Of a stretch of 64,000 bases of DNA, positions 15,839-39,720 are shown piece after piece. A program made the translations under genes and the position numbers. Each line of letters opens with the position of its first letter. Within the stretch, counting starts at the first letter, position 1. The notes beneath the pieces were generated by a model that was not told the DNA's origin, made no database searches, and worked only from the letters and a program-made list of their open reading frames with translations. The stretch comes from Chitinophaga caseinilytica (GTDB lineage Bacteria; Bacteroidota; Bacteroidia; Chitinophagales; Chitinophagaceae): NCBI RefSeq assembly GCF_038396765.1, contig NZ_CP150096.1, positions 2,401,001 to 2,465,000 on the forward strand, given 5' to 3'.

Positions 15839-16968
15839 GGCTGCAGGCGGTTAAATTTTTGGAGAATGGGTAAAACCTGGGTCAAAGGTAATGCTTCCAC
15901 CGAATTGCCGTTCCGGCCTTTCATGCCGCCGGCCATGAACAGCGAATTGATGATCGCTTCTTCGGTGGCTTCAATCGCGGCCATGAACAGGGGCGACATG
16001 CTATCGTTTTGCAGCAACGTCACCGTTTGCGTGGCGGAATTGCCGCTGTGGGGGATGCGGAGCCCTTCGGCCGTGGAGAATGCGATCACATAATCGCCGC
16101 TCCCGTTCGAGGCGATGCCGCCCGTTTTGCCCAGGCCCAGCATGGCCCTTTGCGCCAGCCGCATGAGGTTCCGGTGATCGATGGGCGCATCCGTAGCCAC
16201 TACGATCATGCACGACCCGTCTACGTTATTCAATAACCGGTCGCTGAAATCGAACTTCCCGAGCACTTTGCCAACCGGCGCCCCGTCGATTTCCAGTACG
16301 CCGCCGAAATTGGACTGTACGATCACGCCCACTGTATATCCGCCCAAACTGGCCGGCAGCTTGCGCGAGGCGGTGCCGATGCCGCCCTTGAACCCGAAGC
16401 AGATCGTTCCCGTTCCCGCACCCACATTGCCTTCTTTCACCTTTCCGGAAGCAGCGGTTTTTACGGCCGCTTCCACATCGGTTACCGACACATGCCGGCC
16501 GCGGATATCGTTGAGGTAACCATCGTTCGTTTCGCCTACCACGGCATTGACGGAGCGGAGGTTTTCATTCCCTTTCTCTGCCATGGCCAAACCCGCAACG
16601 GCCTGCATGGCGATCGGCACGCTGAGGGTGTTGGTGAGCACGATGGGCGTTTCGATATTGCCGAGCTCGTTTACCTGCGTGATGCCGGCCAGTTTCCCGA
16701 AACCATTGCCCACAAAGATCGCAGCGGGGATTTTCTGCTGGAAGAGGTTCCCTTCCGCCGGAACGATGGCCGTTACGCCGGTGCGGATAGAATCGCCTTT
16801 GATCAAAGTGGTGTGCCCCACTTTCACGCCGCGAACGTCGGTGATGGCGTTGAGCGCGCCGGGCTGCATGACGCCGATACGGATACCGAATTCCCGCGCG
16901 CGTTTGCGCTCCTGCGCCGCCAGCGCACCGGGCAGCAATAAGGCGATAATGAACCAACTTTTGAACAT
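15835..16968 (-). CDS. P1/DmpA family self-processing aminopeptidase
   Basis: A 377-residue secreted peptidase (signal peptide MFKSWFIIALLLPGALAAQ, start ATG 16968). The family is an Ntn-type hydrolase that cuts itself before a serine to expose the nucleophile; here the site is Gly251-Ser252 in NNVDGSCMIVVATDAPI, with the conserved TDAP after it. Other conserved stretches are ITDVRGVKVGH near the N-terminus, VGAGTGTICFGFKGGIGTASR and GGVLEIDGAPVG. Known members release N-terminal L- or D-residues or beta-alanyl groups from short peptides. It forms a two-gene operon with the aminotransferase through an ATGA overlap and lies 99 bases after the hexosaminidase gene, probably as a separate unit. 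Confidence 0.9.
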   Translation of the reverse strand: MFKSWFIIALLLPGALAAQERKRAREFGIRIGVMQPGALNAITDVRGVKVGHTTLIKGDSIRTGVTAIVPAEGNLFQQKIPAAIFVGNGFGKLAGITQVNELGNIETPIVLTNTLSVPIAMQAVAGLAMAEKGNENLRSVNAVVGETNDGYLNDIRGRHVSVTDVEAAVKTAASGKVKEGNVGAGTGTICFGFKGGIGTASRKLPASLGGYTVGVIVQSNFGGVLEIDGAPVGKVLGKFDFSDRLLNNVDGSCMIVVATDAPIDHRNLMRLAQRAMLGLGKTGGIASNGSGDYVIAFSTAEGLRIPHSGNSATQTVTLLQNDSMSPLFMAAIEATEEAIINSLFMAGGMKGRNGNSVEALPLTQVLPILQKFNRLQP

Positions 16969-17067
16969 GCTGCAATGATAATGATTTCGCAGGAAAGGCC
17001 ACCGCTTTAAACGGCAGCGCCCCCGTTTCCGGAGGCGCACTCATTTATCGATCGAAATCGGAAAGCG

Positions 17068-19038
17068 TTAATTGCGGCAGGGAACGAATGTGAACATCCA
17101 TTTTACCGGGTTTTGCCAGTCGCGCCCTTTGAACGTGGTGACGGGCGCTTTCACTTCCACGATGTTCCAACCCTTCTTCAGCCGCACTTTCGTGGGCGTG
17201 CGGTAAGCGTACCCTTCGTTTGTATAGGGTGTTTCCAGGGTGATGGTTTTGCCGGCACTTTCCCATACGGGTGGCGGGATGAGCTCACCGTTTACACGGA
17301 TGCTGCTGCCCCGGTTGTCCCACTTACCGGCCGTGGGCGGTAAAGACGCGTGGGAGCGGGAGAAGTCGTGGAACCCGATCCAGCAGTCGGTTTCGCCGTT
17401 ACGATCGCTCCAGATGCGGGTGGAGGCGTAGTATGTGGTATTTTCAGCGGGGGAAGACAGGACGCCCTGCAGCTCGGGCCACCACCAATGGCGGAGGATG
17501 ATCGTGCCGCCGGTCGCCGTTTGCGATGGCCTGACGCCGGTGGTGTCGAACTCCCGGCCGGGGTCGCCGTTGTTGGGGAACGGCCCGTACAACTGCCACT
17601 GCTGGGCGCTTTGCGGGAAATACCCGAACGGCATTCCTTTGAAGTATTTCTGCTTATGGTCCATGAGCCGGATTTCGAACGTCGCGAAATCCGCGGCGAT
17701 TTCCGGGCCTATGGCGACTTTGATGCCCGGCGTGCCGCCGCCCCTCCAGGTGCGCTCGGCGAAGGTCAGGAGCGCAGGATAGGCGGGGTTCATGATCATG
17801 ACGTCTTCTTCTTTGGCCACGTTCCTGTCGTGCCAGAGGCACAGCGTGGCGCCCAGTTCGGAGGCATTTCCCACGGCGGAATTGCAGAGCTGCCGCTGGA
17901 AGATGCTGGTCACGCTTTCCAGCGGGTCCATGTGATTGATGTACAGCTGGCGGGAATCGATGTATTTTACAGACCCGTCGCCCGATTCGATTTTCCCTTC
18001 CGACCACAATTGCCGGATCACGCTTTCCGGGAAATTGCCGCCAGGCATCCAGCCGATCACTTTCGTGCCGTAACTTTCCACCAGCTTCGTCATGTCCGGC
18101 AAAAAGTTTTTGTTCGTGATCTTCACTTCATCCGCCCCGATGTGCAGGTACGGCAATTTGTATGCTTCACAGAAATCCCGGACGATCTGTTGAATGATCG
18201 CCATTCCCGAATCGCTTTGCATATCGTGCCCCATCGCGCGCCGGAAAGCGGCGCTGTGGCCCGGCATATCGATTTCGGGTACCAGTTCGATGTGGCGCAG
18301 TTTGCAGTATTCGATCAGTTCGTGTAAATCTTTTTCGGAATAAAATTTCCCCTTTTGCCGGATCATATTTTTCGCGTCGGTGAGTTGCGGGTACCGTTTG
18401 AAGTGCAACCGCCAGGCCACGTCTTCCGTGAAATGGAAATGGAACACGTTCATTTTGTACCGGCTCATGACGTCGATCTGTTGCTTGAGCAGCGCCATGG
18501 GTTGATAGTTGCGGCCTACGTCCACCATGTACGACCGCCAGGAAAAGGCCGGCCAGTCGCGGATCGAGCAACCCTGAACGGATTTTCCGGTCATCAGCTG
18601 TTGGAGCGTCTGAATAGCGTAGTACATGCCTTTTTCGGTGCCGGCGGTCAGCGTGATCTTTTTTTCGCTCACCTCCACCGAATAGGCTTCGTCTTCATGG
18701 ACAGGCGCTTTCACGGCGGATTTTACCAGCTCGATGTACGGCCCGTTTTTGGGTTGCTCCAATCTGACCCTCACCGTGCCTGCACCCGCGTTGAAGATCG
18801 TTGTCTGCAATAGGTTGGCATACCGGAGCATCGTGCGGTCGGTGTAAAGTATCGCGCGGCATTTCCGCAGATCGAAACTTTCGTTGCGCCACTGCAGTTC
18901 CGCGGGTTCCGGCAGGAGCGAGGGTTTCGCGTTTTCGTTGTTCGTGATATGCGGCGGGACGGCCAGCGCCACCGCGCCCGGGCCCAAAAGGCAAGCCAGG
19001 AGCCACACGGAGAGGAAACGGTTCAATCGGGTTTTCAT
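17068..19038 (-). CDS. GH20 beta-N-acetylhexosaminidase
   Basis: A 656-residue exported glycosidase that removes terminal GlcNAc or GalNAc from glycans. After the signal peptide there is an N-terminal GH20b domain (LLPEPAELQWRNESFDLR ... GTEKGMYYAIQTLQQLM) and the catalytic TIM barrel from about residue 160: DVGRNYQPMALLKQQID, MNVFHFHFTEDVAWRL, ELVPEIDMPGHSAAFRRA and HIGADEV, with the substrate-assisted pair Asp303-Glu304. A C-terminal beta domain (residues about 500-656) looks like a carbohydrate-binding or jelly-roll module. It starts three bases after the sialidase stop codon and is the last gene of the sialic-acid operon, fitting a role in removing the sugar exposed once sialic acid and galactose are gone. 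Confidence 0.93.
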   Translation of the reverse strand: MKTRLNRFLSVWLLACLLGPGAVALAVPPHITNNENAKPSLLPEPAELQWRNESFDLRKCRAILYTDRTMLRYANLLQTTIFNAGAGTVRVRLEQPKNGPYIELVKSAVKAPVHEDEAYSVEVSEKKITLTAGTEKGMYYAIQTLQQLMTGKSVQGCSIRDWPAFSWRSYMVDVGRNYQPMALLKQQIDVMSRYKMNVFHFHFTEDVAWRLHFKRYPQLTDAKNMIRQKGKFYSEKDLHELIEYCKLRHIELVPEIDMPGHSAAFRRAMGHDMQSDSGMAIIQQIVRDFCEAYKLPYLHIGADEVKITNKNFLPDMTKLVESYGTKVIGWMPGGNFPESVIRQLWSEGKIESGDGSVKYIDSRQLYINHMDPLESVTSIFQRQLCNSAVGNASELGATLCLWHDRNVAKEEDVMIMNPAYPALLTFAERTWRGGGTPGIKVAIGPEIAADFATFEIRLMDHKQKYFKGMPFGYFPQSAQQWQLYGPFPNNGDPGREFDTTGVRPSQTATGGTIILRHWWWPELQGVLSSPAENTTYYASTRIWSDRNGETDCWIGFHDFSRSHASLPPTAGKWDNRGSSIRVNGELIPPPVWESAGKTITLETPYTNEGYAYRTPTKVRLKKGWNIVEVKAPVTTFKGRDWQNPVKWMFTFVPCRN

Positions 19039-32466: not shown

Positions 32467-32540
32467 GGATCGGTAGTTCAGTCGGTTAGAATGCCGCCCT
32501 GTCACGGCGGAGGTCGCGGGTTCGAGTCCCGTCCGGTCCG
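32467..32540 (+). tRNA. tRNA-Asp (GTC anticodon)
   Basis: A 74-nt cloverleaf. The acceptor stem GGATCGG pairs with CCGGTCC (one T-G pair), the anticodon stem CCGCC/GGCGG frames loop CTGTCAC with anticodon GTC, and the T-arm is GCGGGTTCGAGTCCCGT. The discriminator base is G; CCA is not encoded (CAC follows). It has its own terminator at once downstream, and its 3' end is the source of the repeated fragments found over the next 2 kb. Confidence 0.97.
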
Positions 32541-32593
32541 CACGATTTTTCAGAGACCCGCGCTAGGCGCGGGTTTTCTTTTTTTAATCGAGT
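32539..32593 (+). repeat. tRNA-Asp 3'-end/terminator repeat, copy A
   Basis: Runs from the last two tRNA bases through the terminator to ATCGAGT. It aligns without gaps over 55 bases with 33106-33160 (7 mismatches counted by eye), and its first part aligns with copies C and D downstream. Confidence 0.8.
32556..32588 (+). terminator. intrinsic terminator of tRNA-Asp
   Basis: A perfect 8-bp stem ACCCGCGC / GCGCGGGT with loop TAG, followed by TTTC and seven T. A close copy of this terminator recurs at 33122-33153 with one stem change. Confidence 0.9.
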
Positions 32594-32627
32594 GAGTTAA
32601 GGTATAGTTATACCCCAAAATTGAATG

Positions 32628-33029
32628 TCATATCCCTTTCTCTACGACTATATGATTGTTGCGAATCCAGACATGGAACCCATGTGACCTGTCAAGCAAA
32701 TCGTATGAATTTTCTTCTAGTTTGTTCAGCCATTCTTTAAATTCATTGGCTATTGTCGAAACCAGAGCGTCTTTGATTTTCCTATACTCACTTAATGGAA
32801 CTGCATGAATATCAATATTTATAGTCCCTGGAGATGCAAAAAACCTATCCTTTTTCCCTTTGTAATGTGCTCCGAACAAATGCTCATGTCCTTTAAGGGG
32901 GAAGTAATCAACATGCTCGATATTGGCGATATCAAATTTTGATTCCAGAATTACTTGTTCGAGAAAAGATGATTTCAGTGAATACGCCATTGTTTTTGGA
33001 AGCTTAACTTTCTTAACTCTCAAATTCAT
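32628..33029 (-). CDS. hypothetical protein, first unit of the tRNA-linked array
   Basis: A 133-residue, AT-rich gene for a cytoplasmic protein with no signal peptide or membrane segment. ATG 33029 (MNLRVKKVKLPKTMAYSLK) is preferred; an earlier in-frame start at 33110 would read through the repeated tRNA remnant. It has a mixed alpha/beta look: KFDIANIEHVDYFPLKG, RFFASPGTINIDIHAVPL, then charged helices (EYRKIKDALVSTIANEFKEWLNKLEE). No family recognised. It is the only gene between tRNA-3'-end copies A and B. Its base composition, unlike the neighbouring core genes, points to transfer. Confidence 0.6.
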   Translation of the reverse strand: MNLRVKKVKLPKTMAYSLKSSFLEQVILESKFDIANIEHVDYFPLKGHEHLFGAHYKGKKDRFFASPGTINIDIHAVPLSEYRKIKDALVSTIANEFKEWLNKLEENSYDLLDRSHGFHVWIRNNHIVVEKGI

Positions 33030-33080
33030 AGATAAAATCGCTGATGGGATATAACTTAAAGATAGACAAATTGGGGATTG

Positions 33081-33160
33081 AGTTCGATAATCGTCCCTCC
33101 CAGCCCGCACGATATAGAAGAGACCCGCGCTAGGCGCTGGTTTTCTATTTTTAGTCGAGT
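33081..33160 (+). repeat. degenerate tRNA-Asp 3'-end/terminator repeat, copy B
   Basis: The segment 33081-33113 resembles a tRNA-Asp T-arm and acceptor end (AGTTCGATAATCG then CCCTCCC and CCCGCACGAT) and differs from copy C (33890-33922) at two of 33 bases. 33106-33160 matches copy A, terminator included, at 48 of 55 bases. It is not a functional tRNA because the 5' half is absent. Confidence 0.75.
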
Positions 33161-33219
33161 ATGTTTTCCTGTCAACGTTCTATCCGAAGGAAGCGTTAAC
33201 ATTTGTACAATTATCCTCT

Positions 33220-33786
33220 TTACCAGATTTTCCACCAAGGTTTTTTGACCTCTCTGCCGATAAGGTAACTCCCTCCGTTGATTTCAAAATTACTGATATC
33301 CAGCGTAAAAGGCTTCCAATCATCAGCATCTTGAATAGGGTCATAAGCTAATCCTCTTACTAGGCCATCCTTCAGACTTACTTCTTTAATACCATCCCAG
33401 GAAATTCTCTCGGAATGCTTAAATTGGCAATTCAATTCGACAAGCGTAATTTCTGTCAGATCGTATAAAATCAGCCGACCATCGGATAATGTTAGGCTAC
33501 CTTCATAGTAAATCCCAAAGATAGCAACCGGCTCCGTTGATTCGGGATTCATGACATAACATCGCCCGCCTGCAACTACAAGCAAATTTGGGTAACCGGG
33601 AAACTCATGGACCAGGTTGAACCTAGTCCACCCCTTTTCAAAGTTTGCCACCCAATCTGTACCGTCCACGCGGTGAAAACGAACGACAAAACCCTCAGAA
33701 GAGAACCCGTTTTTGCTTTCAGTTACGGGAATGTACATGGGGCCATATACTGGTAACGATGCTAATATTTCAAATCTTGATTTCAT
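33220..33786 (-). CDS. hypothetical protein, second unit of the tRNA-linked array
   Basis: A 188-residue cytoplasmic protein rich in beta strands (GRCYVMNPESTEPVAIFGIY, SLTLSDGRLILYDLTEITLVEL, FTLDISNFEINGGSYLIGRE) with a Trp-rich tail KKPWWKIW. No signal peptide. I recognise no family; the look is that of the many small beta-rich proteins that travel with polymorphic-toxin loci, but that is only an impression. It lies alone between copies B and C and is lower in GC than the chromosome around it. Confidence 0.6.
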   Translation of the reverse strand: MKSRFEILASLPVYGPMYIPVTESKNGFSSEGFVVRFHRVDGTDWVANFEKGWTRFNLVHEFPGYPNLLVVAGGRCYVMNPESTEPVAIFGIYYEGSLTLSDGRLILYDLTEITLVELNCQFKHSERISWDGIKEVSLKDGLVRGLAYDPIQDADDWKPFTLDISNFEINGGSYLIGREVKKPWWKIW

Positions 33787-33889
33787 CTAAATCTTAATCG
33801 GAATCTAAAATATGGAAACAAATGGAATGATATATGAGTTTATCATTTGGCGTTGCTACATCGCATTTATTTGGTGATTTGATCCAGAC

Positions 33890-33938
33890 AGTTCGATAAT
33901 CGCCCCTCCCTGCCCGCACGATCCTTCAGTGATCCGCG
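33890..33938 (+). repeat. degenerate tRNA-Asp 3'-end repeat, copy C
   Basis: 33890-33922 differs from copy B at two of 33 bases. From 33915 it also follows copy A through CGCACGATYYTTCAGWGA and CCGCG, then diverges before the terminator loop. No hairpin remains. Confidence 0.7.
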
Positions 33939-34056
33939 TATTTCCATTTGTTTTCCATTATCTTTCTAAATCAACTTAAATTGCTAAAGTCTGATTACAT
34001 CCCCGCTGTCCATGGCGTATTGGATGTACTCAGAACTTCATTAAACCGATCGAGTT

Positions 34057-34524
34057 ATGCCTTATGACTTCACATTCAAAAGAACGATTGAACTGGACAA
34101 CCAGACTGCATTGGTGAGAAACATTTCTCTAGCCAAAGCATTGACGGAATCCTTCAGCGAAATAACCGACTTGAATCTGCCCAACCCCGATTTTCACTTT
34201 TCCAAAACCGTAATTGACTCAGAAAAAGAGTTTCCCGAACAACATTTTTACCTTGAGGCAGATATTGATGGCTGCTACTACATCTTTTCATTTTGGAAAG
34301 ACAATTTATATGTTGAGCTGGGAGCTGGAGGAAATATGGATAGGCGGTTTAACCATTTACGGGATTGTTCCGAAATCATACTGGACCATGATTTTCAGAT
34401 TCAATCGCCAACAGAAGGCAAACTATTAACCACAGACATCGGTTTTGAACAACATATCGAAGCGTATAAAGAGTGGGTCAGTTTTATTGACAAGGTCAGG
34501 AAAATCCGCAATTCATCGGAATAA
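34057..34524 (+). CDS. hypothetical protein, third unit of the tRNA-linked array
   Basis: A 155-residue cytoplasmic acidic protein without a signal peptide. It has strand-like stretches (QHFYLEADIDGCYYIFSFWKDNLYVEL) and helices at both ends (SLAKALTESFSEI; EQHIEAYKEWVSFIDKVRKI). No family recognised. It is the only gene between repeat copies C and D, and the only one of the three on the plus strand. It has the size and charge of an immunity-type protein; that is speculation. Confidence 0.6.
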   Translation: MPYDFTFKRTIELDNQTALVRNISLAKALTESFSEITDLNLPNPDFHFSKTVIDSEKEFPEQHFYLEADIDGCYYIFSFWKDNLYVELGAGGNMDRRFNHLRDCSEIILDHDFQIQSPTEGKLLTTDIGFEQHIEAYKEWVSFIDKVRKIRNSSE

Positions 34525-34551
34525 TTGCTTCCGGTTTAGATAAATTGCCTT

Positions 34552-34575
34552 CACGATTTTTCAGTGGATCGCATG
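34552..34575 (+). repeat. short tRNA-Asp downstream repeat, copy D
   Basis: CACGATTTTTCAG (34552-34564) is identical to the bases just after tRNA-Asp (32541-32553), and the following TGGATCGCAT resembles copy C (TGATCCGCGT). It is the shortest copy and closes the array. Confidence 0.5.
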
Positions 34576-34860
34576 TTACGCACCTTTTTTCTTCACGCAA
34601 AACATACATGCATTACATGAAATGAACGTTGTTAAAGCAAAAATATATTTTGCCATATTGTCCCGTATCTTTACTTTCACACAAGTCACTGAACCAATCA
34701 TTGGCGTGACTATTTTACGCAAGTTGTTATCCCTTTTTTTGTAAGCAGCGCTGTCTTGAACAGCATGTTAGCATTACTTCCTTAACGAACTGGCACACAT
34801 CCTCAAAGTTCAAGCTCTCCCCCAATTAAACAGCACAATACGTAAAAAGTATTATTGTCA
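34576..34860. other. AT-rich leader region before the YD-repeat protein
   Basis: About 285 bases (336 from the preceding stop codon) with low GC and many short A/T runs. I see no tRNA, no strong hairpin and no exact TAnnTTTG box; TATCTTTA near 34669-34676 is one base off. It probably contains the promoter of the downstream secreted protein. Confidence 0.4.
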
Positions 34861-37800
34861 ATGTTTAGAGCTATGTTAAGAAAAGTACTTACTTGTTTGG
34901 TAATCACATGGGCGAAGCTTTCGTTGGCCCAGGAAAAGGCAATTATTCCTCCCGCGCCAAATGCAGCCAACCTGGTATTTAATACCGAAACGCAGATGGG
35001 GCTGTATACAGGTACGCCGCAGATATCAATACCTGTCTGGACGGTGAATGCAGGTGTTTTGCAGCTTCCAATTACACTGAGTTATACCTCCGGTGGGGTC
35101 AAAGTGGCCGACATGGCCTCCTGGTGCGGGCTGGGTTGGAATCTCAACGCAGGCGGAGTTATCACGAGGTCGGTAATGGGGCTGCCGGATGAAACACCGA
35201 CCTTTGGCTATATTGACTACACCGTGCCGCCGCAAACGCCTTATAATTCAGCCTTTCTGGGCATGGCGGAAGGCACGATCGATTCGCAGCAGGATTTATT
35301 TTTCTATAGCCTTCCCGGTGGTTCGGGCAGATTCGTCTTTGATACCACCGGAACGCCCCGGTTAATTCCCAAAAGTAATTGTAAGATTACTAAGGGGAAT
35401 GTTTCCATTTTCCAGTTTTCAGATGGTACCGCTACATGCATTTCGGAGTGGCAGATTATTGACGATAAAGGAATTATTTACCGCTTTAAGGACTTTGAAA
35501 AAACACTTTCGGCTTCCAGGAATAATGAGCTACCCGGAAGCGGGTTCGCTACTACCGGACGATGCGTTAACAGCTGGTACTTAACGGAAATGGAGGCGCC
35601 CTCTGGAGAAAAGATAAAGTTTAATTACGTAACCATTAATTTGGCGTATGACCTTGCGCCCACAAAAACAAGTCATGTGAAATTAAATGGCCAATGCGAA
35701 AATTATCCGTCGGCCACCTCCATACCCAGGCAGTATGTGAATTCCAAAAGATTGTCTTCAATTGAATTCCCGGGCGGGAAAATCAGGTTCATTCCTGCAA
35801 CACTGGGACGGGCGGATCTTGTGGGCGACCATGCGCTTAATAGAATTATTGTCGAAGACAAACCGGGCCATGTAGTAAAACAATTTAAGCTGGATTATAA
35901 ATATTTGATCGGGAACAGCCTGGTAGATTACGCAAGCATCAATCCTGCAGGCAGCAGCAATTTCTTCGTTTCTTCGACTATTACGCCTCCCGCGTCTTTT
36001 AGCCGGCGATTAATGCTAATGAAATGGACAGAACAGGATGCAAACGGGGTTCCGCTGAATAATGGCCAGCGCTTTGAATACCATACGGAGTACGGACTGC
36101 CGCATAGGGCTTCTCCATTGACCGATCACTGGGGGTACGCGAATAAAGCAGATAATCCATCAGCGGAGATCCCTTATGTATTGATAGATCCTCTTCAGAC
36201 CGGCAGCCCCAACCCAATGGTTTATATTGGAGGTAAAAGCCCCGATGCTCAGTATGCCAAACAAGGAAGCTTGTACAAAATAAACCATGCCGCAGGAGGC
36301 TTTACGGAGTACGAATTTGAATCAAATGATGCAGGCCCAAGTCCTTACATACCTCCAAAAGTTACCAAAAGAACCGAAATCTATTCCATCTCCCTAAGCC
36401 ACTATAAGTATAACGTGAATGGGTGGTATGAAGGTTTGAATTACGAAATGCGGCCAGACGGGAATGGCAATATGGTTAGGAACTATTATGTTGAGTTTAA
36501 TGTATTAAATGGGAGTACGGGTAGTGCACAGGTACTGCTAACTGATGTTCCTTACTATCCCGCCGGTGGTTTGAGGTTCTACATTATGCATGTCGCAACC
36601 GGCCGTGTCATCTGGAGTGGGAATCACGATGGAAATTTCAATGTTAACCTTCAACCAGGAGCTTACCGCCTTTACCATTGTCCTTCTTATGCATTGTTAA
36701 ACAATCCGCAAAATCCTGACCATCAAAAGTTACATAGCGCCGTGATATCCGGATTGTATACGATAACGAGCGAGCAGGGCTCGCAAGGGCAGCCGCCAAA
36801 AGTAGGAGGGATACGGGTAAGAAAGTGTAGGCAGTATGATTCGGTGACCCGGCAATCGTTATGTAAGGAATATAAGTACGAACAGGACGGAAGTTCGGGT
36901 CAATTGCTGGCTACACCGCTATATCAGTTTTTATTTGATGTATATGATAAAAATGGCGGCCCTTGCAGATACCTGGGCATTTCCTACAATTCCGTAAATC
37001 CTTTAAGCACCACGCATAATTCCTTTGTAGGATACCGGTATGTTGAAGAGAAAGCCGTGTCTGAAACCGGTGTGCCGCTGGGGAAAACAGGGTACTCGTT
37101 TATGGGGCCTTTGGAATCGCCGGACTTGTTATATAGAGGTAGTGCCAGCGCCGCAGGGTTTTCCTACTACGATGCCCCCAATCCTCCTGCAGATCGCCGG
37201 GACTGGTTGCGCGGCTTTTTGACGCAGCAGGTGGATTACAAATATGATACTGTAACGCGGTCTTATAGCCCTGTCCGTAAAATTGAAAATACGTATAGGA
37301 AGACGCTCGAACCGGTCAGCAAAGGTTTACAAGTGAATATAAACAGCCGGGATCTTGTGAATGGCCGGCATTCTGTTTTGTTTACATATTATGGTCATCA
37401 TTCCGGAACCATATTACTTGAAAAAACAACAGAAACACTTTATCAGGAAAACGGAGCATTTACAACAACGACTATGATAGAAAATAGCGGCAAGAGTTTT
37501 CTGCCTGTTTGTAAATCCATCGCCCAAAGCGATGGCTCCCTGTCAAAGGAATATTACACCTATCCAAAGGAATATGCACCTGGGAATGCTGCCATTGATA
37601 ATTTGATCAGGAAGAATATAGTATCGGTGCCAATAGAGACGGTGAAGCTAAAAGAACAGCCATTGGGTACCCTTTCGGTTACCGGAGGTAGCCTTACGAA
37701 TTATTATCCCACGGGATGGGGGAAAGTTCAATCCGTTAACATATTGGAAACCAACCAGGCTATTCCGGGGGCCTCATTTAAGTTCTCCAACGCACCCGTC

Positions 37801-38280
37801 GGGCAATTGCCTGCTTCCCGGAATGCTACCCAATTTGCTGCAGATGCCCGCTACAAAGCACGCGTATTGTTCAGTAACTATGACGCTTATGGGAATCCGA
37901 CGGAAAAGCAAAAGGCAAACGATGTGAAGGAAGTATACCTGTGGGGATACAACGGTTCCTATCCCGTCGCAAAAGTCGTAGGAAGTGATTATGCGACGGT
38001 ATCGAGCCTTATCAATCAGAGTATGCTCGATAATGCGAGTGCATATACGGATGCGCAGATCAGGGCTGAACTGAATAAAATCCGTGCCTGGTTTGCCAAT
38101 AACGGCCAGGTAAGTGTATCGACTTATACTTATGCGCCATTGATAGGCATGACCAGCCAGACGGATGCCAATAATTTTACCACTTTCTACGAATATGATT
38201 CCTTCGGGAGATTGGTATTGGTGCGCGACCATAACAAGAAAATCCTTAAAAAAGTGGAATACGGCTATGCCGGACAGTAG
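34861..38280 (+). CDS. large secreted YD/RHS-like repeat protein
   Basis: A 1139-residue protein starting at ATG 34861 (a TTG six bases upstream is possible), with a signal peptide ending in LSLAQEKA. The N-terminal third resembles the entry region of Bacteroidota RHS proteins (PQISIPVWTVNAGVLQLPITLSYTSGG, ADMASWCGLGWNLNAGG). The C-terminus has YD-type repeats, ending FTTFYEYDSFGRLVLVRDHNKKILKKVEYGYAGQ. There is no toxin domain and no RHS core after the last repeat; it stops where related systems continue into a second gene, and the next gene here is on the other strand. It could be a complete surface protein of this class or the front part of a split polymorphic toxin. GC is below that of the flanking core genes. 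Confidence 0.8.
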   Translation: MFRAMLRKVLTCLVITWAKLSLAQEKAIIPPAPNAANLVFNTETQMGLYTGTPQISIPVWTVNAGVLQLPITLSYTSGGVKVADMASWCGLGWNLNAGGVITRSVMGLPDETPTFGYIDYTVPPQTPYNSAFLGMAEGTIDSQQDLFFYSLPGGSGRFVFDTTGTPRLIPKSNCKITKGNVSIFQFSDGTATCISEWQIIDDKGIIYRFKDFEKTLSASRNNELPGSGFATTGRCVNSWYLTEMEAPSGEKIKFNYVTINLAYDLAPTKTSHVKLNGQCENYPSATSIPRQYVNSKRLSSIEFPGGKIRFIPATLGRADLVGDHALNRIIVEDKPGHVVKQFKLDYKYLIGNSLVDYASINPAGSSNFFVSSTITPPASFSRRLMLMKWTEQDANGVPLNNGQRFEYHTEYGLPHRASPLTDHWGYANKADNPSAEIPYVLIDPLQTGSPNPMVYIGGKSPDAQYAKQGSLYKINHAAGGFTEYEFESNDAGPSPYIPPKVTKRTEIYSISLSHYKYNVNGWYEGLNYEMRPDGNGNMVRNYYVEFNVLNGSTGSAQVLLTDVPYYPAGGLRFYIMHVATGRVIWSGNHDGNFNVNLQPGAYRLYHCPSYALLNNPQNPDHQKLHSAVISGLYTITSEQGSQGQPPKVGGIRVRKCRQYDSVTRQSLCKEYKYEQDGSSGQLLATPLYQFLFDVYDKNGGPCRYLGISYNSVNPLSTTHNSFVGYRYVEEKAVSETGVPLGKTGYSFMGPLESPDLLYRGSASAAGFSYYDAPNPPADRRDWLRGFLTQQVDYKYDTVTRSYSPVRKIENTYRKTLEPVSKGLQVNINSRDLVNGRHSVLFTYYGHHSGTILLEKTTETLYQENGAFTTTTMIENSGKSFLPVCKSIAQSDGSLSKEYYTYPKEYAPGNAAIDNLIRKNIVSVPIETVKLKEQPLGTLSVTGGSLTNYYPTGWGKVQSVNILETNQAIPGASFKFSNAPVGQLPASRNATQFAADARYKARVLFSNYDAYGNPTEKQKANDVKEVYLWGYNGSYPVAKVVGSDYATVSSLINQSMLDNASAYTDAQIRAELNKIRAWFANNGQVSVSTYTYAPLIGMTSQTDANNFTTFYEYDSFGRLVLVRDHNKKILKKVEYGYAGQ

Positions 38281-38293
38281 GAAGGGGCCTCCC

Positions 38294-39091
38294 TTACTCC
38301 ATCACCCTCGGCATCCACATCCCCATCGTTGCCGCGAACGACCCAACCGCCATCCCAAGCGAAACCAGCGTCAGGAAAGTGGCGAAAACCGTTCGCTGGT
38401 AAGCGGGGCCGGAACCCCTCACGCCGAAGTACCACGCTGCTATCGCCTGGGGCATAATATATACGGACACCGCCAGCACCGTCAGAAAGGGCCCCGTGAA
38501 AGTTTTGGGATCAAAGCCCACGGGCGCGCGGTGGATCAGCAGCCAAAGCATGAGGAAAACACGGAACATCCAAACCCCGCTCATCCCCAGGAAAAGATGC
38601 ACCGCCCATTGCTGATGCACCTTGAACCTCCGTTCCATGGCGCTCCTGATCGCGAAATAAGCACAAATAAGAATGATCGCGGCATTGGCGCTAATCATCA
38701 CCTGCATCACCGGGCCTCCCACCGCCCCCCGCACCCAGGTAAGGTAAATCCCCGCCACACTCACCAGGAACGCGGATGCGATGTAAACCCGCCCGCTGAT
38801 CCGGTGGAACCGCGGCACCCGCGCCCGCAGCGATGGCACCAGCTGCAAAGGCCCTAAAATGGTGATCACCGCCGCCAGCGCCACATGCAGCCCGAAAATA
38901 ATGTTGCCGGTAAGATCGCTTTTGTCGTAAAAATGAGGATTGACGTTGTTCCACTTTTCCAGGTCCCCCAACGCCGTATTCCGGTAATACTGCATCAGGA
39001 TGTAATAGGCAAAGATGGATTGGCCCAGGCAGATGACGATAAACCATAGCCGGACCGCATAATGTAAGGGATGAGCCGCTTTTTTGTTCAT
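38294..39091 (-). CDS. DUF2306 family membrane protein
   Basis: A 265-residue integral membrane protein with about seven helices, for example WFIVICLGQSIFAYYILM, IIFGLHVALAAVITILGPLQLVP, RVYIASAFLVSVAGIYLTW and VWMFRVFLMLWLLIH. The pattern HRISGRVYIASAFLVS and HQQWAVHLFLGMSGVWMFRV, with histidines at helix ends, is that of DUF2306. Function is unknown; a haem or quinone link has been suggested from the histidines but is not shown here. The Crp-type regulator gene lies 44 bases upstream on the same strand. Confidence 0.8.
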   Translation of the reverse strand: MNKKAAHPLHYAVRLWFIVICLGQSIFAYYILMQYYRNTALGDLEKWNNVNPHFYDKSDLTGNIIFGLHVALAAVITILGPLQLVPSLRARVPRFHRISGRVYIASAFLVSVAGIYLTWVRGAVGGPVMQVMISANAAIILICAYFAIRSAMERRFKVHQQWAVHLFLGMSGVWMFRVFLMLWLLIHRAPVGFDPKTFTGPFLTVLAVSVYIMPQAIAAWYFGVRGSGPAYQRTVFATFLTLVSLGMAVGSFAATMGMWMPRVME

Positions 39092-39135
39092 AATATGAAA
39101 ATAACGGCTATATCATGAGCGGCACTTAACAATTG

Positions 39136-39720
39136 TTAGGAAATGATCTCCCGCCTGATCCGGCTTAAACTTTCCGGCTTGATCCCCAAATAGGAAGCGA
39201 TAAATTTCAATGGTACATTCTTGATAATTTCGGGACTGCTCTTCATGAATTTCAAATATCGCTGTTCGGCGGTCAGCGTAGCCAGGTCGTTCATCCTTTG
39301 CTTGTCTTCATCCATCACCTGGTTAAACAACTTTATCGTGAAATCCTTCTGCGTGATACTGGTTTTCACCGTCCGGTCCGCATCCTGTTTCGATATCCGC
39401 AACAATTCGCAGTCGGTAATGCAATGCAGGTTTTCGCCGGATGGCGTTTGATTGGCGAAATGAAACCAGGAAGTGAAGAAACGCGGTCCGTTGTTCAGGT
39501 CAACCGTCACTTCTTCGCCGTTGTCGTTCACGTAAAACTTACGCATGAACCCCGAAACGATGAAATTGTGATGCTGGGGGATTTTTCCCGCGGTTTCCAG
39601 CATTGTATCTTTTTTCACCTGCAAAACCTTGAATGTGTTCCGGCAACTATCCTTATCCGATTCGGGCATTTCAATGAATTGTTGAATATACCGGAAAAGC
39701 GTTTCGTAATAGGGGTCCAT
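39136..39720 (-). CDS. Crp/Fnr family transcriptional regulator
   Basis: A 194-residue regulator with an N-terminal cyclic-nucleotide-binding-like beta roll (FKVLQVKKDTMLETAGKIPQHHNFIVSGFMRKFYVND) and a C-terminal winged helix (LKFIASYLGIKPESLSRIRREI). No cluster of cysteines, so not an oxygen-sensing Fnr. It probably forms a unit with the DUF2306 gene. Proteins of this shape are very common in Chitinophagaceae next to the transporters or small enzymes they control. Confidence 0.88.
   Translation of the reverse strand: MDPYYETLFRYIQQFIEMPESDKDSCRNTFKVLQVKKDTMLETAGKIPQHHNFIVSGFMRKFYVNDNGEEVTVDLNNGPRFFTSWFHFANQTPSGENLHCITDCELLRISKQDADRTVKTSITQKDFTIKLFNQVMDEDKQRMNDLATLTAEQRYLKFMKSSPEIIKNVPLKFIASYLGIKPESLSRIRREIIS

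What the first reader, a model, noticed from the sequence alone, without database searches (positions are those of the whole stretch)
32467..34575. Array of single-gene units separated by decaying copies of the tRNA-Asp 3' end and terminator
Sequence shows four related fragments in a row: A (32539-32593, true tRNA end plus terminator), B (33081-33160), C (33890-33938) and D (34552-34575). A and B align without gaps over 55 bases with 7 mismatches, terminator hairpin included; B and C share 33 bases with 2 mismatches. Each interval (567, 809 and about 640 bases) holds exactly one small AT-rich gene of unknown function and nothing else. Known biology: tRNA 3' ends are integration targets and leave direct repeats, but islands normally have an integrase and one repeat pair. 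Here no integrase is visible and the unit is one gene per repeat. Inference: either remnants of serial integration trimmed to one gene each, or a gene-cassette system that uses a tRNA 3' end as its recombination site. B and C look like a different tRNA-Asp version (acceptor end CCCTCCC) than A, as if brought by the incoming DNA.
Basis: partly seen in the sequence, partly recalled or inferred. Interest (0 to 1): 0.72.

Follow-up and report, generated by a model that had tools for sequence, protein, structure and literature searches.

The report
Island scars stacked behind tRNA-Asp gene
Behind an aspartate tRNA gene in a Chitinophaga genome sit two or three stubs of mobile DNA that inserted there one after another, each now holding one gene; relatives suggest that an unusual class of DNA-inserting enzyme, a serine integrase, uses tRNA ends as its landing site in this genus.

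Summary
The repeats are real (A/B 55 bp, 7 mismatches; B/C 33 bp, 2), except D, which is marginal. They are not decaying tRNA ends. B and C carry a 27-bp element that in the stretches read lies downstream of and collinear with tRNA-Asp. It reads as the element-side half of an attachment site left by islands inserting at the tRNA end; the A/B similarity is the flank (a terminator) that once adjoined the tRNA. Relatives carry the same sites with a large serine integrase whose gene ends against a tRNA: 40 of 51 integrase loci within 50 bp (Asp, Ser, Phe, Lys and others), the element supplying a new terminator hairpin. Orthologous loci keep flanks but differ in content; whole units recur at other loci and species at 96-98% identity. 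The window's genome has no serine integrase and its units have truncated ends: serial accretion of elements worn down to single genes. Closest precedent: Dehalococcoides ssrA tandem islands and CIME accretion. Unusual: a serine-integrase clade at tRNA 3' ends. The origin of the single-gene units' left ends is unresolved; a trans-mobilised cassette system is not excluded.

The parts
32467..32541 (+). tRNA-Asp(GTC), integration target; exchange inferred in its terminal CCGC
   Evidence: ARAGORN; Rfam RF00005 68.1 bits
32540..32593 (+). left end of unit 1 (A, type T1): terminator hairpin; 52 bp alignable to the about 100-bp T1 end of mobilizable elements in relatives
32628..33029 (-). gene 1, 133 aa, unknown function; 73% identical paralog at tRNA-Asp locus I of the same genome
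   Evidence: dN 0.15, dS not computable (saturated); no NCBIfam or PADLOC family, one Pfam match far below its cut-off
33082..33109 (+). attachment-site scar B (core1, 0 mismatches): element half-site joined to the older flank
33107..33160 (+). left end of unit 2 (T1, 54 bp alignable), inferred to have once adjoined the tRNA
33220..33786 (-). gene 2, 188 aa, all-beta protein; 203 database matches including its own; the named ones shown are hypothetical proteins, largely of Bacteroidota
   Evidence: model pLDDT 90.8; weak Foldseek matches to propellers
33891..33917 (+). attachment-site scar C (core1, 2 mismatches)
33916..33945 (+). decayed left end of unit 3 (hairpin broken)
   Evidence: alignment; no alignment to intact T1 from its boundary
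34057..34524 (+). gene 3, 155 aa, unknown function, 6 database matches including its own
   Evidence: alignment
34552..34575 (+). D: possible left-end remnant without half-site; marginal
34855..38280 (+). YD/RHS-repeat gene (1141 aa), older cargo; an 80% homologue in C. rhizosphaerae ends about 30 bp before a core1 site
38294..39720 (-). DUF2306 and cNMP-binding genes, right flank shared with C. rhizosphaerae (91%)

Best explanation
The stretch is the worn-down end product of tandem accretion at a tRNA gene. Integrative elements carrying a large serine integrase insert at the 3' end of tRNA-Asp. Exchange lies in the shared CCGC at the end of the acceptor stem, so the tRNA itself is not altered but its terminator is pushed away; the element brings a new one, whose hairpin stem includes its own half-site. 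At the far end the other element half-site (core1, GTTCGATAATYGTCCCTCCCAGCCCGC) is joined to whatever followed the tRNA before, namely the older terminator and older units. Repetition gives tRNA | unit | core | unit | core ..., youngest next to the tRNA. The site is shared with mobilizable elements using a tyrosine integrase (type T1 left end). Deletions then removed integrases and most cargo; in the window two clear units and a probable third are left with one gene each and truncated left ends. Shown: sites, orientation, differences between orthologous loci, unit sharing between loci and species, integrase position in relatives, absence of the integrase in this genome. Inferred: enzyme activity, exact crossover, polarity of growth, deletion as the trimming step, and how T1 left ends came to be paired with core1 right ends.
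For: (1) Core1 with up to 3 mismatches: 20 sites in 11 of 79 genus genomes, reversed-pattern control 0 in 79; wider motif with up to 1 mismatch: 95 sites in 35 of 79, control 0 in 79. Exact pattern in the 84,980-species collection: 9 stretches, all Chitinophaga. (2) In 34 fetched tRNA-Asp regions (915 kb, chosen for tRNA, core or integrase hits): 33 sites at up to 7 mismatches, all downstream of and collinear with tRNA-Asp, 0 reverse, 0 upstream. (3) The core1 sites with up to 8 mismatches are followed by a terminator-type end of a kind that elsewhere directly follows tRNA-Asp (C broken; G006 14296 decayed). At locus I (upstream genes checked) six genomes have tRNA|T1 while G055 has tRNA|T2-integrase ... 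core|T1: empty and filled states. (4) Integrase with Resolvase and Recombinase domains. All 52 rows were examined as 51 loci: the integrase similarity ends within 50 bp of a facing tRNA 3' end in 40 (Asp 17, Ser 11, Phe 4, Lys 3, Met 2, Pro, Ala, Glu 1 each), within 160 bp in 3 more, and not in 8. A hairpin end follows the tRNA in the 13 distant loci printed. (5) Unit sharing: locus I unit of this genome vs C. rhizosphaerae locus III unit, 96.3% over 6.1 kb; same cargo 98.0% in G035 although the locus III upstream flank is 82%; locus II unit vs sp. E66, 96.4% over 6.4 kb. (6) Integrase C-terminal remnant (39 aa, 92%) beside a core1 in this genome. (7) Trimming: locus II unit 3 has integrase-element type ends on both sides, one cupin gene, 1,011 bp; locus I unit 1 is a chimera of two elements.
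Against: The units in the window have T1 left ends, not the integrase-type T2 end, so they are not simply trimmed serine-integrase elements; fusion with tyrosine-integrase elements or replacement of the terminator must be assumed. P/P' dyad symmetry, expected of a serine integrase attP, is not significant over the whole consensus (487 of 5000 shuffles as good); only the heptamer TTGTCCC/GGGACAA stands out by eye. Integrase loci not at a detected tRNA: L130, L136, L138, L139, L153, L157, L147 (cut by the contig end) and L160 (361 bp away). At a looser cut-off (9 of 28 mismatches) one search also lists 2 reverse-strand and 2 forward sites that look like chance. No excision or circle was observed. 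Single-gene units are frequent (9 of 33 units with one ORF of 60 aa or more), more regular than random deletion might give. The fourth boundary D is marginal.
Confidence: 0.74

Rival explanations
1. Gene-cassette system: single-gene units with T1/T3 left end and core1 right end are themselves mobile, excised and inserted next to the tRNA by an integrase supplied in trans, as integron cassettes are.
For: 8 of 33 units are at most 1.6 kb and 9 have one ORF. G055 locus I has three single-gene units in a row. The barstar gene of this genome's locus II exists as a native copy and as a unit copy (95% identical) whose similarity ends inside the core at TCGATAATC, as if a chromosomal gene had been made into a unit and inserted beside the tRNA.
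Against: No whole single-gene unit was found at two loci or in two genomes in the comparisons made (one search covered gene 1 in 60 of 79 genomes). T1 ends of the window's units are truncated to 52, 54 and about 0 alignable bp against about 100 bp in mobilizable elements. No serine integrase in this genome.
Confidence: 0.12
2. Homologous recombination between repeated terminators (T1, about 100 bp) and tRNA-Asp copies moves units between loci; site-specific recombination plays little part.
For: T1 copies align at about 77-100% identity between many loci; three tRNA-Asp genes in this genome with the same sequence.
Against: Sites are followed by different ends (T1, T2, T3), so there is often no homology across the junction, yet it is precise. 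An integrase gene abuts the tRNA in many relatives.
Confidence: 0.09
3. Classical tRNA islands of tyrosine integrases only; core1 is a diverged displaced tRNA fragment.
For: An element with a tyrosine integrase is inserted at tRNA-Asp in G035 and G006 with an 18-bp displaced tRNA end.
Against: Core1 is not an ungapped match to the tRNA end and is conserved as its own sequence; core1-bounded units in G055 and G058 carry the serine integrase at the left end.
Confidence: 0.05

Closest known systems
Dehalococcoides ssrA genomic islands (PMC3146451; passages and one section read)
   Same: Tandem islands behind an RNA gene 3' end, all repeats downstream, serine recombinase gene on the reverse strand next to attL, a conserved motif at the repeats that does not match the RNA gene, some islands without integration genes (suggested there to be cis-mobilizable).
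   Different: Target there is tmRNA at the T-loop with a 20-bp RNA-gene repeat and a CcrB-like plus a small recombinase; here tRNA genes, exchange inferred at the end of the acceptor stem, half-site within a replacement terminator, several tRNA-Asp loci per genome.
CIME accretion in streptococci (review PMC5704250, passages read; Pavlovic 2004 seen only as a reference)
   Same: Decayed elements that keep att sites and lost integrase and transfer genes, stacked by later integrations.
   Different: Units here go down to one gene in about 0.5 kb; the relatives that keep an integrase have a serine integrase at tRNA genes.
Tyrosine-integrase tRNA islands (Islander, PMC4383910, passages read)
   Same: tRNA 3' end as target; the tyrosine-integrase element in G035 and G006 fits this model.
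   Different: [quoted passage not shown] the family found here ends within 160 bp of a tRNA 3' end in 43 of 51 loci.
Integron cassette arrays (recalled)
   Same: One gene per unit, repeats between units, insertion next to a fixed site.
   Different: No tyrosine integrase near the array, gene orientation mixed, units up to 18 kb, repeat tied to a tRNA gene.

Membership tests
Tandem integrative elements / CIME accretion at an RNA gene | att-like boundaries all downstream of and collinear with the target gene | tested here: met
   33 of 33 sites in 34 fetched regions, 0 reverse; those regions were chosen for tRNA, core or integrase hits
Tandem integrative elements / CIME accretion at an RNA gene | content differs between orthologous loci with conserved flanks | tested here: met
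   locus identity checked
Tandem integrative elements / CIME accretion at an RNA gene | relatives carry an integrase at the target | tested here: met
   (relatives; not in the window's genome)
Tandem integrative elements / CIME accretion at an RNA gene | excision and integration activity | not testable with these tools
   no experimental data
Large serine integrase attP | imperfect inverted repeat of two half-sites around the crossover | tested here: inconclusive
   heptamer symmetry only; 487 of 5000 shuffles as good overall
Classical displaced tRNA fragment island | distal repeat is a fragment of the tRNA gene | tested here: not met
   core1 shares ungapped only the terminal CCGC(A); met only for the tyrosine-integrase elements of G035 and G006
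Integron cassette array | integron-type integrase beside the array | tested here: not met
   no PF00589 match within 500 kb of the tRNA-Asp genes
Integron cassette array | attC sites folding as single strands | not tested
   no fold of the sites was run
Tycheposons | tRNA-targeted cargo elements with tyrosine recombinase of the Prochlorococcus type (recalled) | not tested
   only a search listing was seen

The most novel reading that the evidence does not exclude
A serine-integrase-based cassette system at tRNA-Asp: single genes, including host genes captured next to the tRNA (barstar case), are packaged between a terminator-type left end and a core1 right end and moved by an integrase acting in trans, so that arrays behind tRNA-Asp act as a gene store analogous to integrons.
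Probability: 0.12. Interest if true: 0.85.

Novelty: new variant of a known kind. Interest (0 to 1): 0.62.

Why it matters
A family of large serine integrases specialised on tRNA 3' ends (Asp, Ser, Phe, Lys, Met, Pro, Ala, Glu, perhaps Leu), each with an element end that supplies a replacement terminator, would add a targeting mode that the Islander paper (2014) stated as unknown. The arrays record past insertions, one relative's element carries an anti-phage system (Shango-type genes), and conserved tRNA ends are predictable landing sites for genome engineering.

Tried and rejected
Different tRNA-Asp version as source of B/C: rejected, the three full-length tRNA-Asp matches in this genome end GGTCCGC. 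Cargo function: genes 1-3 have no Pfam family above cut-off, no NCBIfam or PADLOC family; gene 3 model is weak (pLDDT 69) with no Foldseek match at E<=0.001; gene 2 is a confident all-beta model with weak propeller matches. attP symmetry test: inconclusive. Literature: the listings of searches showed no paper on this array or on serine integrases at Chitinophaga tRNA genes; this covers only the open-licence PMC library, and most listed papers were not opened. Papers seen beyond the listing: PMC5704250, PMC4383910, PMC12884075 by passages, PMC3146451 by passages and one section.
Full report
OBSERVATION. D is marginal (7 of 24 mismatches, reached in 15 of 500 shuffles). Each interval carries one plausible ORF.

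WHAT THE REPEAT IS. The B/C 27-mer is not a copy of the tRNA-Asp end; ungapped it shares only the terminal CCGC(A). It occurs in this genome three times (B, C and 6.3 kb behind tRNA-Asp of locus I), and with up to 3 mismatches 20 times in 11 of 79 genus genomes with a reversed-pattern control of 0. For 16 of these 20 a tRNA-Asp upstream on the same strand was read in the fetched DNA; for G063, G064 (2 sites) and G051 none was in the stretch fetched. A wider motif with at most 1 mismatch gives 95 sites in 35 of 79 genomes, control 0. In the 84,980-species collection the exact pattern is found in 9 stretches, all Chitinophaga; records near the window's own may be left out there.

ARCHITECTURE. 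In 34 fetched regions with tRNA-Asp there are 33 sites at up to 7 mismatches, all downstream of and collinear with the tRNA (the regions were chosen for tRNA, core or integrase hits). At a looser cut-off one search lists 2 reverse-strand and 2 forward sites that look like chance. The sites with up to 8 mismatches are followed by an end of a few types (T1, T2, T3) that also occur directly after a tRNA-Asp; C is broken and one in G006 decayed. In other species the sites are followed by further hairpins. So each junction reads: element half-site joined to the flank that once adjoined the tRNA. This explains why B resembles A including the terminator.

INTEGRASE. In G055 and G058 the unit next to the tRNA has the T2 end and a large serine integrase gene (Resolvase, Recombinase) reading toward the tRNA. 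The family (E <= 1e-60) is in 31 of 79 genomes, not in the window's (no PF07508 match at all). The 52 rows make 51 loci. The integrase similarity ends within 50 bp of a facing tRNA 3' end in 40 of 51 (tRNA-Asp 17, Ser 11, Phe 4, Lys 3, Met 2, Pro 1, Ala 1, Glu 1), within 160 bp in 3 more (L135 Ser, L137 Asp, L159 Leu), and not in 8: L130, L136, L138, L139, L153, L157, L147 (cut by the contig end) and L160 (tRNA-Asp 361 bp away) (G055 and G058). In the Asp/Ser loci the sequence right after ...CCGC is typically like AAGAGGGACTGATTATC or AAAAGGGACAAATCATC and continues into a hairpin; a different hairpin follows the tRNA in the 13 distant loci printed. Half-site and replacement terminator thus appear to coincide (inference). 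A second element type with a tyrosine integrase and relaxase-like genes uses the same tRNA-Asp with an 18-bp displaced end in G035 and G006; that integrase family is in 20 of 79 genomes, not here. The relaxase label is my reading of the sequence and comes from no family search.

MOVEMENT AND TRIMMING. Locus III (the window) has flanks 94% and 91% identical in C. rhizosphaerae but a different interior; genes 1-3 are absent from that stretch (tblastn on fetched regions; by whole-genome DNA for genes 2 and 3). The three loci were told apart by their upstream genes. Among 79 genomes, gene 2 DNA has relatives only in G066 and G063 (70-75%), without a core within the 3-kb loci, and for gene 3 no DNA match longer than 32 bases was listed; one search scored only 4 candidates per genome, so its sensitivity is limited. 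Whole units are shared between loci and species: 6.1 kb at 96.3% between this genome's locus I and C. rhizosphaerae locus III, 98.0% with G035, 6.4 kb at 96.4% with sp. E66 at locus II, compared with 82% (G035) and 79% (sp. E66) for the upstream flank of locus III. Locus I unit 1 joins the left 6.1 kb of one element to the last 0.2 kb of another, which is what deletion between neighbours would give. Locus II unit 3 has both ends of the integrase type, one cupin gene and 1,011 bp. An integrase C-terminal remnant lies beside the locus I site. In the window the alignable left ends are 52, 54 and about 0 bp, against about 100 bp in the mobilizable elements, and the hairpin and half-site are worse with distance from the tRNA, as expected if older units lie farther out (inference).

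WHAT REMAINS OPEN. The window's units combine a T1 left end with a core1 right end. Two routes are possible: an element with tyrosine integrase inserted between tRNA and a serine-integrase element, followed by deletion of both integrases (G035 locus III shows that tandem order, with only an integrase remnant left in the second element), or replacement of the terminator by recombination with another tRNA-Asp locus. T1 also follows tRNA-Asp at all three loci of sp. E66, so it may be an old resident terminator. A cassette system acting in trans is not excluded; the duplicated barstar gene at locus II, ending inside the core at TCGATAATC, is its best support.

CARGO. Database matches, own copies included: gene 1 has 4, gene 3 has 6, gene 2 has 203. 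Gene 1 against its 73% identical paralog has dN 0.15 with dS saturated, which suggests purifying selection. Units of relatives and of this genome's other loci carry RHS/DUF6443, Fic, nuclease-like, barstar, antiporter and Shango-type defence genes.

VERDICT. Real and informative; mechanism known in kind: tandem accretion with decay, as in Dehalococcoides ssrA islands (PMC3146451). New in detail: a serine-integrase family at the 3' ends of several tRNA genes, against the 2014 statement of PMC4383910 that none was known, and erosion down to single genes. Whether such integrases have been described since could not be settled from the listings seen.

Noticed in passing
L028:538-14289 (G058, C. deserti): The serine-integrase element at tRNA-Asp carries Shango-type SngA/B/C genes and a putative AbiC gene: such elements bring anti-phage cargo.
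   Followed up: partly
L117, L121-L125, L127-L129, L131, L134 (Ser); L146, L148-L152, L154-L156, L158, L159, L161, L162 (Pro, Ala, Glu, Phe, Lys, Leu, Met): The same integrase family sits at the 3' ends of other tRNA genes in other Chitinophaga species.
   Followed up: partly
L020:8674-9160 and 16713-17172: Barstar gene present twice at locus II, 95% identical; similarity stops inside the core sequence at TCGATAATC.
   Followed up: partly
L027 and L028, integrase ORF: The integrase reading frame runs on through the antisense strand of tRNA-Asp, so automatic annotation may give it a false C-terminus.
   Followed up: no
window 38294-39720: DUF2306 plus cNMP-binding gene pair lies behind tRNA-Asp locus III here and in C. 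rhizosphaerae but at locus I in G035 and G006.
   Followed up: no
G035 locus II (composite of L095 and L024, 5959-7230): A distant serine integrase relative (24% identity over 435 aa) lies about 0.6 kb behind tRNA-Asp.
   Followed up: no
L021:8312-8344: A T1-type hairpin about 28 kb behind tRNA-Asp locus II without a core sequence before it.
   Followed up: no
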